64,000 nucleotides of DNA, from positions 124,001 through 188,000 of the forward strand of contig NZ_CP059066.1 in NCBI RefSeq assembly GCF_017301615.1. Direction: 5' to 3'. A program made the translations under genes and the position numbers. The DNA is from Koleobacter methoxysyntrophicus. GTDB taxonomy: Bacteria > Bacillota > Thermosediminibacteria > Koleobacterales > Koleobacteraceae. The notes beneath the pieces are model-generated. The model was not told where the DNA came from and ran no database searches. It saw only the letters and a list, made by a program, of their open reading frames with translations. This document shows positions 16,856-50,066 of this stretch, one piece after another (within the stretch, counting starts at the first letter, position 1; each line of letters begins with the position of its first letter).

Positions 16856-16939
16856 TCATAAACGGGCTATTATAAGAGCATCTTTATCACCACCTTGAGC
16901 TTTGAATATGAGTTTTTTAAGCTTTTGTTTTTTTGCCAT
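16856..16939 (-). pseudogene. duplicated, truncated head of the sigma region-2-like gene
   Basis: A 27-codon frame (MAKKQKLKKLIFKAQGGDKDAL, then divergent) that copies the first 22 codons of the gene at 19439-19699. The leader and its ribosome site GGGTGATAATT are also copied. After codon 22 similarity stops, marking a deletion or recombination point. Direct duplication with part of the riboswitch terminator region. Confidence 0.75.
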
Positions 16940-17052
16940 AATTATCACCCTTTTTTATAATATTTTCCCTATTTTTAAAAAAGTCAAAAAAGACCTGCTA
17001 TTGCGAAGATTGCAGGTCGTAATCTATAAACACCTGTAGTAGCAGCAAAGCT
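16873..17052. repeat. direct repeat, copy 1 of the riboswitch-tail/gene-head duplication
   Basis: Matches 19633-19812 in the same orientation. It contains the gene head, a T-rich stretch and a terminator hairpin GACCTGC/GCAGGTC (16992-17018), which on the minus strand is followed by six T. The aptamer half of the c-di-GMP switch is not recognisable upstream here. The remainder of 16768-17225 holds no gene I can support. Confidence 0.7.
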
Positions 17053-17225
17053 GTTGGAACAACTGATTGATTCCTGGGTACAACCGGTGGTTTTAGGTAT
17101 GAACTTCGGGAGAATGATGACATAATATAATAAAACATAATATAATTAAGTACAGAGTAGAGGAAATAAGTTGCCTATTTAAAGCCTTAAATTTTGATAA
17201 CAAATAATTGAAGGAGAGATTTTTA

Positions 17226-18404
17226 ATGAAATTGAAACACATTATTTTTTTAATTATCATAGTTTTGATTCTTACTGCCTATAATAGCTTACGGCAGTCG
17301 GCTTCGAAAATCGCAAATGAAAAACAAGATATTAGTCAGGCAAGTCAAAGCATTGATGAAGATACCACAGTAAATTTCAATGAGCTTTATATGATAGATG
17401 AAAATTATGGCTTCGGTATATCAGATAAAAATGTTTTTAAAACTACAGATGGAGGAGAATACTGGACCAATATAACTCCAGATTTAAGTGAATTAGATAT
17501 TTCTAAAAATCTTAAAGAACATTTACATTTCTTTTCACTGGATAAAGAAAAACTATGGGTTTATATTAAAGAGGATATAGGGAATAATATGAAACTTTAT
17601 AAAACCACGAATGGAGGAAAACAATGGAAAGAATCAACTATCATCTTACCCGTATCATTTCAGTCATCTTCGATCTACATCTACTTTTTAGATGAACAAA
17701 ACGGATACATGCTAAGCGAATCCGATCCTGCATTGAGTTCTAGCTTAAAAGCAGTGCTTACTACAAAAAATGGTGGCGAAAGCTGGATTTGTTTAACAGA
17801 GGCTTTTTTTGATAATAAAAATGAAAAATTCTTGCCGAACTTAGGATATCCTACAGGTCTTTCTTTTGTCGATCAAAAGAATGGATGGGTTGGCTACTGG
17901 GATCACGGTCATGAAATTATTCCTTTATTTCGGACAGAAGATGGCGGCAAAACCTGGTTAAATCAGACTATACCATTGCCCGATAAATTTAAGCATAAAA
18001 ATAAGAGCGATTTTACATCCAATGTGTTTCCCCCTGTTTTTTCTCAAGATAAAAAGAAGGGTGTCCTTTTGGTACAATACATTGATGAAACAGGATCTAG
18101 TTTTTCATCTTATTTTACAACTGATAAAGGAAATACCTGGAATATTGGGTCGTCCATTATAGCAAACTCGGTCAAATTCTTAAATCCCGATTTGGGGTGG
18201 GGTAATGACTCAGAACATAATAGAATATATATATCATATGATGGTGGAAATAAATGGTCCCAAATAATCAGCAAAATGTCCTTGAAAAACAGCGATATTC
18301 AGTTTGTCAATAAGAATACCGCATTTGCCCTTGTAAAATCCAGAAATAAGTCACATATTTATAAATCCGTTGATAATGGAGTTACGTGGAAAATGTTATA
18401 TTAA
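17226..18404 (+). CDS. BNR/YCF48-like beta-propeller repeat protein, exported
   Basis: A 392-residue protein with an N-terminal hydrophobic anchor (residues 5-21, no lipobox) and at least six sialidase-type Asp-box repeats: KTTDGGEYWTN, KTTNGGKQWKE, TTKNGGESWIC, RTEDGGKTWLN, TDKGNTWN, SYDGGNKWSQ and SVDNGVTWK. Such proteins form extracellular beta-propellers; catalytic sialidase residues are not evident. ATG at 17226 follows AAGGAG. Lower GC than flanking genes and location inside an accessory island suggest acquisition. Role unknown. Confidence 0.75.
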   Translation: MKLKHIIFLIIIVLILTAYNSLRQSASKIANEKQDISQASQSIDEDTTVNFNELYMIDENYGFGISDKNVFKTTDGGEYWTNITPDLSELDISKNLKEHLHFFSLDKEKLWVYIKEDIGNNMKLYKTTNGGKQWKESTIILPVSFQSSSIYIYFLDEQNGYMLSESDPALSSSLKAVLTTKNGGESWICLTEAFFDNKNEKFLPNLGYPTGLSFVDQKNGWVGYWDHGHEIIPLFRTEDGGKTWLNQTIPLPDKFKHKNKSDFTSNVFPPVFSQDKKKGVLLVQYIDETGSSFSSYFTTDKGNTWNIGSSIIANSVKFLNPDLGWGNDSEHNRIYISYDGGNKWSQIISKMSLKNSDIQFVNKNTAFALVKSRNKSHIYKSVDNGVTWKMLY

Positions 18405-18512
18405 CTCCTTTCAATTTTTTCTAATAGTCTTAAAAGAGAATAATTCTAAGTATTAAGGCCCCATTTTCAGTCACCTCCAATTTCATTTATTTTATTTTCC
18501 CTATACTATATA

Positions 18513-18541
18513 AAAGAGAAAACAGGAAGCTATTTTAATAA
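18513..18541 (-). promoter_or_regulatory. non-canonical promoter-like element, copy 1
   Basis: Minus strand: TTATTA, 17-base spacer, CTCTTT, embedded in a longer conserved block (GGGTTATTAAAA...TNCCTGTT...TATATAGTA) shared with 19399-19427. Downstream are GGAGGTGACTG and a 14-codon frame only, possibly the head of a lost second holin-like gene. Confidence 0.5.
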
Positions 18542-18567
18542 CCCTCTGCAAATATTTTTTTTGCTTA

Positions 18568-18885
18568 TTATACTTTGTCTTTTTCTTTCAAGCCTTTCTT
18601 CTTCACATTTCCTAATATACTCTCGTTTATTATCTGCCAGCTTCCCATAGCCGATGTTGTTATCAATAGCCCATTTAAAAAATATAACGGCAGATTTATA
18701 ACTTTAAATTCACCTTTTGCAATATTGGTGAAAATAACAATTATTTCAGCTACTATAAATACAGTCCATCTCGTAGGCATCACTTTAAAACACTTTATTT
18801 CTTTAATAAATTCCACAACAAGTACTGTGGCGGTAACGGCACCGGTCAAAGTCTCAAGATAAGCGTAGGTAAATTGATCTCCCAA
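18568..18885 (-). CDS. holin-like small membrane protein
   Basis: A 105-residue protein with three hydrophobic segments (about 10-26, 41-58 and 62-86) and a strongly basic end KKKGLKEKDKV. Size, topology and tail fit phage or bacteriocin-associated holins, but I recognise no family signature. TTG at 18885 follows GAGGTG at good spacing. It lies after the sigma region-4 gene on the same strand, as UviB-type holins do beside UviA-type sigma factors. Confidence 0.5.
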   Translation of the reverse strand: MGDQFTYAYLETLTGAVTATVLVVEFIKEIKCFKVMPTRWTVFIVAEIIVIFTNIAKGEFKVINLPLYFLNGLLITTSAMGSWQIINESILGNVKKKGLKEKDKV

Positions 18886-18932
18886 AGTCTATCACCTCAA
18901 CAGTAGAAAATTGATAATCCGCTGGATGTCAA

Positions 18933-19355
18933 CTAATTCATATAATTTTTCATATGCTCTTTTATCTTTTTAAGTGCTCTGTTCTTAATCTTATGAACAG
19001 CCGGTTGGGATATACCCAACTTCTCTGCCGCTTCTTTCTCAGTCAATTCTAGAAAAAATATCATTTTTATTACTTTCTGTTGTTTTAATGTTAAATGCGA
19101 TAAAATTTGATCAATATCTATTTTTTCTTCTATTTTTGTTATATTGCTGCTACCAGCAATAGTATCGATCATCTCTATAGATTCGTATTCCGAATCATCA
19201 AGAGGTTTATTCAGTATCAGCATTTCGTTCCGTCTTAAATCCTGCTGCTTTTTTAATATCCTGATTACTTCGTGTTTAATCCCGACTACATACCATGCTA
19301 CTATTCTAGCCTCTTCCAAATCTTGTTCGTAAATTTCTGAAACACATGAAACCAT
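18933..19355 (-). CDS. sigma-70-family factor, C-terminal half (Tn916 Orf7-like)
   Basis: A 140-residue protein. Residues 12-45 (EEARIVAWYVVGIKHEVIRI) resemble the end of sigma region 2 and region 3, and residues 80-135 form region 4 with helix-turn-helix LTEKEAAEKLGISQPAVHKIKNRALK. The main region 2 is missing, but the upstream gene supplies it. The arrangement matches Tn916 orf8/orf7 and resembles the SigO/RsoA pair of B. subtilis, where two proteins make one sigma factor. ATG at 19355 has AAAGGAGGG upstream. Confidence 0.8.
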   Translation of the reverse strand: MVSCVSEIYEQDLEEARIVAWYVVGIKHEVIRILKKQQDLRRNEMLILNKPLDDSEYESIEMIDTIAGSSNITKIEEKIDIDQILSHLTLKQQKVIKMIFFLELTEKEAAEKLGISQPAVHKIKNRALKKIKEHMKNYMN

Positions 19356-19398
19356 TTTCCCTTCCCTCCTTTAAATGTTTTTTTACTTTGTACTATAT

Positions 19399-19427
19399 AA
19401 AGAGAGAACAGGGACATGTTTTAATAA
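19399..19427 (-). promoter_or_regulatory. non-canonical promoter-like element, copy 2
   Basis: Minus strand TTATTA-N17-CTCTTT, within the same extended block as the element at 18513. It is placed directly before the sigma region-4 gene. The CTCTTT -10 resembles the CTTTTT type used by UviA/TcdR-group sigma factors, so it may be autoregulatory. Confidence 0.5.
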
Positions 19428-19438
19428 CCCATTTCCGG

Positions 19439-19699
19439 CTATGATTTAAAATTTTTGTCATTTTTTTTATCAGAGAGAAACTTTTTGAGTTCTTCTCTAC
19501 TAGAGGTAATGTTCTCTTTATAGCTAAGTGTCGCTTTGATTATCCACTCTATAATCTCCGAATCGATATCTTCATTACCATAGCGTCGGGCATATTTCTT
19601 AACAATTGGTTTAAACCGCATAACCACTTGATTAAGAGCATCTTTGTCACCGCTTTGAGCCTTAAATATGAGTTCTTTGAGCTTTTGTTTTTTTACCAT
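19439..19699 (-). CDS. sigma region-2-like helix-turn-helix protein (HTH_16, Tn916 Orf8-like)
   Basis: About 86 residues, starting VKKQKLKELIFKAQSGDKDALNQVV, broken here, then MRFKPIVKKYARRYGNEDIDSE, the pattern of sigma region 1.2/2.1 in HTH_16 proteins. It would act with the region-4 protein encoded next. ATG at 19699 is chosen because the duplicated copy conserves the sequence from here and not the longer start at 19723. Its leader is a c-di-GMP riboswitch. Confidence 0.75.
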   Translation of the reverse strand: MVKKQKLKELIFKAQSGDKDALNQVVMRFKPIVKKYARRYGNEDIDSEIIEWIIKATLSYKENITSSREELKKFLSDKKNDKNFKS

Positions 19700-19812
19700 A
19701 ATTATCACCCTTTTTTCATCCATTTTTCGCCATTTTTTAAAAAGGGTAAAAAAAGACCCGCTATCGAAAAGACTGCAGGCCGTAATCTATGTACTGTAGT
19801 GGCAGCCAGGCT
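19633..19812. repeat. direct repeat, copy 2 of the riboswitch-tail/gene-head duplication
   Basis: Parent copy of the block at 16873-17052: start of the sigma region-2-like gene, T-rich leader and terminator. Differences are scattered substitutions, so the duplication is not recent. Confidence 0.7.
19748..19781 (-). terminator. intrinsic terminator of the c-di-GMP riboswitch
   Basis: Minus strand GGCCTGC pairs with GCGGGTC and is followed by seven T. It sits between aptamer and gene, so ligand binding could switch transcription on or off. Confidence 0.7.
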
Positions 19813-19896
19813 ATCATAGTGCAGGAGTATACCCATAAAAACACCTTAGACCCTATGGCTTTGCGCCCTTATCTTTCGATAAGTTTGCCTTTATCT
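19800..19896 (-). ncRNA. cyclic di-GMP-I (GEMM-I) riboswitch
   Basis: The complement reads AAAGGCAAAC, hairpin TTATC-GAAA-GATAA with the GNRA loop, GGGCGCAAAGCC, then ATAGGGTCTAAGG and later ACTATGATAGCCTGGCTGCC. These are the conserved parts of the GEMM-I aptamer in order. It precedes a terminator and the split sigma factor genes. Confidence 0.92.
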
Positions 19897-19952
19897 TTTT
19901 TGTTAATTTGTTTACTCCGGGAAACTTTCTTTAGAGCATCCGGGATATCTCG

Positions 19953-19969
19953 TTTGTATAGTATACAAA
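19953..19969. promoter_or_regulatory. perfect palindrome upstream of the c-di-GMP riboswitch
   Basis: TTTGTATA-G-TATACAAA, 57 bases upstream of the aptamer on the minus strand. The shape is that of a GntR-type operator. No -35/-10 pair is clear nearby. The stretch 19970-20185 shows no gene. Confidence 0.45.
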
Positions 19970-20185
19970 TGCTGGCCGAACTAACCCTTGTTAAAAGCAA
20001 CCAAAGTTATTGAAGCAAATGAGGAGCTTTTTGATATTTTTGAACATGTTTTGGTCATCTCCTTTTTTGATTTTTCTACTAATTTTTTCTACACTTTTTA
20101 ATTATTTCCTGCGTGTTGGAACAACTTTTTTTGGAACCGCCCTCACTTCCGCAAGGGCCAGTTCTTGAGCCGTTCAGTGGATATT

Positions 20186-44292: not shown

Positions 44293-44597
44293 ATTATCTG
44301 AAAAAATCAATCAGCATATTGATTACCTCCTTTACTGCAAAATAAAATAGCTCCTATTAGACATTTATTTTAAATCTAATAGGAGCTATTAGCTGAACTC
44401 AGCAATTAAGGTGAGCTCCATCACCTTCTGTATCGGACTGGCTTTATAAACAGAAAAGGCCGCTAAATCTGTTCTGTTTACAATTAAGTTATACATTAAA
44501 AAAGCATAAGTGGCATATATTGCTATAAAATGACAAGATATTTTATGAAAAAGGGTTTCCAAGCTGGATATTTCTACGAAATCGTTCTGTTCGGTAT
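44293..44597. other. gene-free stretch with a long inverted repeat
   Basis: A 16-base perfect inverted repeat AATAGCTCCTATTAGA / TCTAATAGGAGCTATT (44346-44361 and 44375-44390) with a 13-base centre probably ends aor transcripts, although no T run follows. A second small repeat with GAGCT cores lies at 44382-44417. No coding frame is seen in the rest. Confidence 0.5.
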
Positions 44598-49539: not shown

Positions 49540-49692
49540 CCTCGCTAAGTTATCGACCTCCCTTTCAACGCTTACGAGGTTAGCTGTCGGATTCGGGTCG
49601 AAAGAGATAACCCTACACTTTCCCCTGATTGGGGATAGTGATTCACCCCAAAAAATGGTTCCCCCGCTTCTTTTTTAAAAAAGAATTAAGCG
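49540..49692 (-). ncRNA. cyclic di-AMP (ydaO/yuaA) riboswitch
   Basis: The complement shows the conserved blocks in order: GCGGGGGAACCA, GGGGTGAATC, TAGGGTTATCTCTTTCGACC, CGAATCCGACAGCTAACCTC, GTAAGCGTTGAAAGGGAGGTC. This is the ydaO aptamer. With the terminator at 49495 it forms a genetic-off switch on rising c-di-AMP, by analogy with the family. Confidence 0.92.
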
Positions 49693-50066
49693 TTTTAAAA
49701 GTGATAACCTATATCATAATCATATTAAACTGTCTTAGACTATTATATAATAGTTTTGCGTATTTGTCAAATGCTACCGATTAGATCAGAGTTTTTAGAA
49801 AGAAACGAATTGCTCGCCTTCGGTATTTGCCTGTTCATGTAAATTATGTTATAAAATAGATTTTAAATCCCCGAAATGGATGTGTTATAATATCTTTGTA
49901 TTAAATATTAACTCCTTTTGCCCTTCTCTGTTATATAAAAGAATACTATTATATGGAATATAAGTGAATTAAGAAAGCATATTGGCAGTTCAGGGATATT
50001 AGAAAAGATGAAAACTTTATATTGAAAATATAACAAGAGAATATAAATTAAGAAAGGACTGTGCCT
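49693..50066. other. gene-free divergent intergenic region
   Basis: AT-rich, no frame supported. It must hold the promoters of the riboswitch unit (minus) and of the hydrolase gene (plus), but no clean -35/-10 pair could be assigned. Confidence 0.4.

What the first reader, a model, noticed from the sequence alone, without database searches (positions are those of the whole stretch)
18513..19896. c-di-GMP riboswitch controlling a split sigma factor and a holin-like protein
Seen in order on the minus strand: GEMM-I aptamer, intrinsic terminator, sigma region-2-like gene (86 aa), sigma region 3/4 gene (140 aa), holin-like gene. Known: two-protein sigma factors exist (SigO/RsoA; Tn916 Orf7/8), and UviA-type sigma factors sit beside holins. 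Inferred: c-di-GMP level decides whether a dedicated sigma factor is made, which then drives a lysis or release function. I am not aware of a described c-di-GMP switch placed over a split sigma factor.
Basis: partly seen in the sequence, partly recalled or inferred. Interest (0 to 1): 0.85.

Follow-up and report, generated by a model that had tools for sequence, protein, structure and literature searches.

The report
c-di-GMP riboswitch gating split sigma factor
A bacterial signal-sensing RNA sits in front of a sigma factor (a switch for RNA polymerase) made in two separate pieces, next to a membrane-pore-like protein; the same cassette recurs in many anaerobic Bacillota, often beside cell-wall-cutting enzymes, so it looks like an undescribed signal-controlled release or lysis circuit.

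Summary
Rfam confirms a c-di-GMP-I aptamer (77.4 bits) followed by an intrinsic terminator, then ORF A (HTH_16, sigma region 2.1-2.2), ORF B (regions 2.3-2.4 and 4) and a three-helix holin-like protein (H). Fused homologues in related genomes show that A+B are one sigma factor cut inside region 2. A promoter-like element precedes B and recurs behind H; these are its only two copies in the 3.1-Mb genome. Relatives across Bacillota repeat the plan: c-di-GMP-I leaders precede A or H in about 15 loci, and the same element precedes B, H or cargo (30 strong sites against 0-1 in shuffles). Cargo beside B includes cell-wall hydrolases without signal peptides. A, B and H are under purifying selection (dN/dS about 0.2). 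Most likely c-di-GMP switches A off; when it falls, A joins B, the factor feeds back on B and H, and contents are released. The window copy lacks a lytic enzyme and has a decayed agrD gene and a decayed second copy, so its own output is uncertain. I found no description in the open papers searched. New variant of known kinds; ligand direction, sigma activity and lysis are untested.

The parts
20118..20141 (-). GCGGTTCC / AGTTGTTCC direct repeats resembling LytTR (AgrA-type) binding sites
   Evidence: read by eye; fuller form CCAGTTGTACCG..CCAGTTGTTCC in L042, where an AgrA/LytR-type response regulator is encoded nearby. Not tested statistically
19912..20047 (-). decayed agrD-like autoinducer peptide gene
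   Evidence: same position and recognisable sequence as the intact AgrD gene of L042 (TIGR04223, 44.8 bits); frameshifts and stops visible
19798..19899 (-). c-di-GMP-I (GEMM-I) riboswitch aptamer
   Evidence: RF01051 77.4 bits, all 87 positions
19887..19900 (-). aptamer 5' strand predicted to form an antiterminator with 19781-19766
   Evidence: duplex -10.6 kcal/mol, 8/300 shuffles reach it; pairing probability about 1 in the truncated transcript
19748..19781 (-). intrinsic terminator of the riboswitch
   Evidence: -12.9 kcal/mol, z -3.71, U7 tail
19439..19699 (-). subunit A, 86 aa, HTH_16 / sigma region 2.1-2.2
   Evidence: PF12645; best PDB fold matches are sigma region 2; aligned to the N-terminus of fused homologues
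19391..19429 (-). promoter-like element P1 upstream of B
   Evidence: 24/24 to the two-box consensus; same element ahead of B in most relatives
18933..19355 (-). subunit B, 140 aa, sigma regions 2.3-2.4 and 4
   Evidence: Sigma70_r4, TIGR02937, aligned to fused homologues, PDB sigma chains
18568..18885 (-). H, 105 aa, holin-like membrane protein, three helices
   Evidence: no family; model pLDDT 58.6; two best viral structure matches are annotated holins; orthologues in relatives
18504..18543 (-). promoter-like element P2 downstream of H
   Evidence: 21/24 to the consensus; second of only two copies in the genome
18453..18464 (-). micro-ORF ATG GGG CCT TAA after P2
   Evidence: same position as ATGATGATGGGACCGTAA in L042
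16859..17030 (-). decayed second copy: riboswitch-type terminator and N-terminus of A
   Evidence: A profile E 1.4e-8 at 16859-16954, sequence

Best explanation
The locus is a self-amplifying release switch. A transcript that starts upstream (in relatives probably under an Agr-type quorum regulator) runs through a c-di-GMP-I aptamer. With c-di-GMP bound, the aptamer holds its 5' strand and the terminator forms, so subunit A is not made. When c-di-GMP is low, the aptamer 5' strand pairs with the 5' arm of the terminator and transcription continues into A, B and H. A (regions 2.1-2.2) and B (regions 2.3-2.4 and 4) together make one sigma factor, which recognises GGTTATTAAA-N15-CTCTTTATATAGTA ahead of B. 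This gives positive feedback on B and H, and in relatives on cargo genes. H permeabilises the membrane and lets cytoplasmic cell-wall hydrolases or other leaderless proteins out. Shown by computation: aptamer, terminator, gene order, fused homologues, recurring promoter-like element, cargo identity, selection on A/B/H. Inferred: ligand polarity, A:B pairing, promoter use by A:B, pore function, release or lysis as the outcome.
For: GEMM-I with a terminator directly downstream that does not overlap the aptamer, the OFF-type layout (PMC9262584), and C. difficile class I riboswitches act as OFF switches (PMC6200980). Fused 203-251 aa homologues align to A and then B, and one hits TIGR02937 over its full length at 62 bits. 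c-di-GMP-I leaders precede relatives of the cassette in the class and in other Bacillota. Promoter-like element: 30 sites at >=20/24 in 25 loci against 0-1 in dinucleotide shuffles; in 17 genomes 18 matches against 2 for the reversed pattern. Cargo behind B: Amidase_3 twice, Rv2525c-like glycoside hydrolase twice, a weak glucosaminidase match, and a peptidoglycan-binding protein with an Ntox44 domain. H: the two best viral fold matches are annotated holins. dN/dS 0.16-0.26 for A, B, H in comparisons with the window. The genome has seven GGDEF domains, so c-di-GMP is plausibly present.
Against: No experiment. The window copy lacks a lytic enzyme next to H, its agrD is decayed, and the two promoter-like elements are the only ones in the genome, so a wider regulon is not visible. 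The antiterminator stands out from shuffles only in the window (8/300) and not in most relatives. The H model is low-confidence (pLDDT 58.6). The element also contains a G-run/C-run inverted repeat followed by a U-rich stretch, which could act as a terminator. Several relatives are decayed, and some have no detected riboswitch (L106, L107, L109, L110, L113-L115).
Confidence: 0.6

Rival explanations
1. A and B are a real riboswitch-gated split sigma factor, but H is not a releasing holin: it could be a small membrane regulator (for example an anti-sigma or transport-type protein) and the neighbouring hydrolases serve wall remodelling or competition without lysis.
For: No Pfam or NCBIfam holin family is hit; the H model has low confidence; two relatives (L044, L046) have A and B without a detected H; non-lytic roles for holins are reviewed in PMC9527704.
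Against: H has its own copy of the promoter-like element in several relatives (L104, L107, L110, L113); leaderless amidases sit in the same cassettes; best viral fold matches are holins.
Confidence: 0.22
2. In this organism the cassette is a decaying, horizontally acquired remnant with no present role.
For: Decayed agrD and decayed second A copy beside it, no lytic cargo, absent from the three order-level relatives searched, and less diverged from G004 than the housekeeping rex gene (pS 0.33-0.47 against 0.84).
Against: A, B and H are intact and under purifying selection (dN/dS 0.16-0.26); aptamer, terminator and both promoter-like elements are intact.
Confidence: 0.13
3. The repeated element is an attenuator/terminator hairpin and not a promoter, so there is no sigma feedback loop and the riboswitch simply controls one operon.
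For: G-run/C-run inverted repeat followed by a U-rich stretch in many copies.
Against: The loop TTATTAAA and the downstream TATATAGTA are conserved although a terminator needs neither; copies lie 5' of B, H and cargo genes, including a divergently oriented H in L104; copies lie close ahead of ribosome-binding sites.
Confidence: 0.12
4. A and B are two independent DNA-binding regulators and not one factor.
For: Pfam names A a helix-turn-helix domain; the two genes are separate.
Against: Fused homologues, sigma region 2 fold matches for A, sigma chains matched by B.
Confidence: 0.05

Closest known systems
[quoted passage not shown]
   Same: sigma 2-like and sigma 4-like parts on separate proteins that must act together; the pair transcribes its own operon (PMC8103513, PMC10028694)
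   Different: no c-di-GMP riboswitch, holin or lytic cargo is described for it in the passages read; here fused homologues also exist and one subunit is under a riboswitch
TcdR/BotR/UviA group V sigma factor loci with TcdE-type holin
   Same: dedicated autoregulated sigma factor with a holin-like gene in the same locus, linked to release of cargo (PMC4885068)
   Different: single-chain factor; no riboswitch directly over the sigma gene that I know of; different sequence family
Clostridioides difficile flgB operon (Cdi-1-3 riboswitch, SigD)
   Same: class I c-di-GMP OFF riboswitch whose operon contains a sigma factor that relays the signal (PMC6200980)
   Different: there the sigma factor is the normal flagellar one within a long flagellar operon; here a dedicated two-piece factor lies directly behind the aptamer
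Tn916 Orf7/Orf8
   Same: HTH_16-type small protein next to a sigma-like region 4 protein (recalled, not tested)
   Different: part of a conjugative element; no conjugation genes recognised among the ORFs around the window locus

Membership tests
c-di-GMP-I (GEMM-I) riboswitch | covariance model match above the gathering score | tested here: met
   77.4 bits against 35
c-di-GMP-I (GEMM-I) riboswitch | G and C at the two ligand-contact positions (G20, C92 in Vc2) that favour c-di-GMP | tested here: met
   AAAGGCAAAC and UGCC in the aligned window sequence; position assignment made by me from recalled Vc2 numbering; the residues are named in PMC9049102 (title and abstract)
c-di-GMP-I (GEMM-I) riboswitch | binding of c-di-GMP and ligand-dependent termination | not testable with these tools
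   needs in-line probing and in vitro transcription
[quoted passage not shown]
[quoted passage not shown]
   shared promoter-like element strongly recurrent but use by A:B not shown
[quoted passage not shown]
   needs biochemistry
[quoted passage not shown]
   SigO/RsoA sequences were not fetched; A belongs to HTH_16
group V sigma (TcdR/BotR/UviA) | single-chain sigma factor | tested here: not met
   two ORFs in the window
phage-type holin | small membrane protein with one or more transmembrane helices | tested here: met
   three predicted helices, hydropathy peaks
phage-type holin | match to a curated holin family | tested here: not met
   no Pfam or NCBIfam hit; only fold similarity to annotated holins
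phage-type holin | pore formation releasing an endolysin | not testable with these tools
   needs lysis assay

The most novel reading that the evidence does not exclude
A widespread, horizontally moving cassette class in anaerobic Bacillota in which c-di-GMP (and, in some members, Agr-type quorum sensing) gates one subunit of a split sigma factor. The two-subunit factor acts as an AND gate with positive feedback and fires a holin plus leaderless cell-wall hydrolases or antibacterial proteins, causing programmed lysis or release in part of the population. In some lineages B additionally appears to need a +1 ribosomal frameshift.
Probability: 0.35. Interest if true: 0.87.

Novelty: new variant of a known kind. 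Interest (0 to 1): 0.74.

Why it matters
If right, it is a direct route from a second messenger through an RNA switch to a dedicated two-piece sigma factor and on to cell lysis or holin-mediated release. It would be a natural logic gate, probably bistable, and would link biofilm or motility signalling (and Agr quorum sensing) to release of enzymes in thermophilic and subsurface anaerobes. It also gives a clean natural experiment on split sigma factors, because fused and split versions with related promoter-like elements exist side by side.

Tried and rejected
Single-sequence scans for B in genome contigs and viral contigs found nothing; the alignment query worked for genomes but not for viral contigs, so I do not call the cassette a prophage. 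tblastn of H in phages found nothing; plasmids gave only weak B matches. My first promoter pattern had a wrong gap and missed even the window. Antiterminator duplex energies were not better than shuffles in most relatives, so I do not claim a conserved antiterminator. The automatic terminator scan does not list the riboswitch terminator, whose stem has interior mismatches. An att-like conserved tail behind B was seen in only five loci and not pursued. Reading A as an ordinary helix-turn-helix repressor was rejected because of the fused homologues. cGAMP sensing was judged unlikely because the discriminating position is G.

Full report
WHAT IS THERE. On the minus strand the window carries, in order, a c-di-GMP-I aptamer (19899-19798, RF01051, 77.4 bits), an intrinsic terminator (19781-19748, -12.9 kcal/mol, z -3.7), ORF A (86 aa, HTH_16), ORF B (140 aa, sigma region 4) and ORF H (105 aa, no family). 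Between A and B lies GGTTATTAAAACATGTCCCTGTTCTCTCTTTATATAGTA, and a second version lies behind H. Two related patterns find only these two sites in the whole 3.1-Mb genome; a stricter version finds only the first.

THE SIGMA FACTOR IS SPLIT INSIDE REGION 2. Relatives in three genomes of the same class (L051-L054) encode one protein of about 203-251 aa whose N-terminal part aligns to A and whose remainder aligns to B. One of these matches the general sigma-70 model over its whole length (62 bits). By this alignment A corresponds to regions 2.1-2.2, and B to 2.3-2.4 plus 4 (region assignment is my reading). The predicted fold of A (pLDDT 75) has sigma factor structures containing region 2 as its ten best PDB matches, although none reaches E 0.001. 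B matches sigma chains by sequence.

THE CASSETTE RECURS. Using B as a query I found relatives in Tepidanaerobacter, Thermosediminibacter, Desulfofundulus, Peptococcaceae and other Bacillota. A c-di-GMP-I leader precedes A or H in L024, L025, L026, L028, L034, L035, L062, L065, L066, L067, L103, L104, L105, L108, L111 and L119; several of these are decayed copies. Others (L106, L107, L109, L110, L113-L115) have A/B/H parts without a detected riboswitch. Gene order varies: riboswitch-A-B, riboswitch-A-B-H, riboswitch-H-A-B, A-H-B.

THE PROMOTER-LIKE ELEMENT. With a two-box consensus there are 30 sites at 20 of 24 or better in 25 loci, against 0-1 in dinucleotide shuffles. Most lie ahead of B, H or cargo genes. 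An exact pattern gives 18 matches in 17 genomes against 2 for the reversed control. The consensus was taken from members of the set, so these numbers overstate independence somewhat; the shuffles and the reversed control guard against composition only. I infer that the A:B factor reads this element, so that A is gated by the riboswitch while B, H and cargo are amplified by feedback.

CARGO. Directly behind B, without signal peptides by inspection, relatives encode N-acetylmuramoyl-L-alanine amidases (L062, L111), Rv2525c-like glycoside hydrolases (L068, L115) and a protein with a weak glucosaminidase match (L113). L106 encodes a 1326-aa protein with SH3, peptidoglycan-binding, M14 peptidase and Ntox44 domains. 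This is the main support for a release or lysis function. The window has lost, or never had, such a gene; P2 is followed by a micro-ORF and then by a convergent BNR-repeat gene.

SWITCH POLARITY. In the window the terminator does not overlap the aptamer, as in the Cd1 OFF-switch and unlike the pilM ON-switch (PMC9262584). In C. difficile class I riboswitches act as OFF switches (PMC6200980). In the truncated window transcript the aptamer 5' strand pairs with the terminator 5' arm at probability near 1, and 8 of 300 shuffles do as well in duplex energy. In most relatives this test does not stand out. I put OFF at about 0.75.

STATE OF THE WINDOW COPY. A, B and H are intact, with dN/dS of 0.16-0.26 in comparisons of the window copy with its nearest relatives. 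Synonymous divergence from G004 (pS 0.33-0.47) is well below that of rex (0.84), and three order-level relatives lack a close B homologue, so the cassette was probably transferred horizontally; one housekeeping gene is a thin yardstick. An agrD-like gene just upstream is decayed; in G004 the intact gene (TIGR04223) sits directly before the aptamer with AgrB, an AgrA/LytR-type regulator and a GGDEF protein nearby. In the window's own genome the single AgrB gene is followed by a GGDEF protein. A decayed second copy of A with its terminator lies at about 17030-16859.

KNOWN OR NEW. Parts are known kinds: GEMM-I riboswitch, two-subunit sigma factor as in SigO/RsoA, holin beside a dedicated sigma factor as in the TcdR loci. 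I found no paper in the open library that describes the combination, but subscription papers are mostly not held. C. difficile SigD already lies in a c-di-GMP riboswitch operon, so a riboswitch above a sigma gene as such is not new.

LIMITS. No ligand, sigma or lysis activity was measured. The H model is weak.

Noticed in passing
L062 2530-2560, L065 5975-5995, L066, L067, L068, L049, L103, L105, L107, L108, L109, L119 (start of B): In about 12 relatives the SD-placed start codon (ATA in L119) opens a short micro-ORF (often ..Y-T-stop) and B continues in the +1 frame (for example ATG GCT CCC TAC ACC U GAC ACC TAC), with no other well placed start: candidate programmed +1 frameshift. The window and its closest relatives do not need it.
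   Followed up: partly
L042 6158-11921; L043 5404-8133; L048; L122 7728-10282: Agr-type quorum sensing genes (AgrD, AgrB, kinase, LytTR regulator) and a GGDEF gene next to the cassette in relatives; in the window's own genome AgrB is followed by a GGDEF protein.
   Followed up: partly
L062 5129-6868, L105, L108, L125, L126, L140: Large serine recombinase genes lie near the cassette or downstream of a copy of the same promoter-like element; L067 and L119 have integrase-like genes and nearby tRNA genes, suggesting mobile elements.
   Followed up: partly
L062 2953, L065 6385, L103, L067 4589, L049: Conserved 38-nt inverted-repeat segment around the stop codon of B, beyond which cargo genes differ: possible exchange site.
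   Followed up: no
window 16859-17030: Decayed second copy of A and its riboswitch-type terminator on the far side of the BNR gene.
   Followed up: partly
window 17208-18404: BNR/Ycf48-like repeat protein convergent with the cassette; a similar protein lies downstream of the cassette in L047.
   Followed up: no
window 49553-49702 and 44373-44434: c-di-AMP riboswitch (106 bits) and fluoride riboswitch (46 bits) elsewhere in the window.
   Followed up: no
G000:C1:2316988 (L059): Another c-di-GMP-I riboswitch in the same genome precedes a flagellar flgB-like operon.
   Followed up: no
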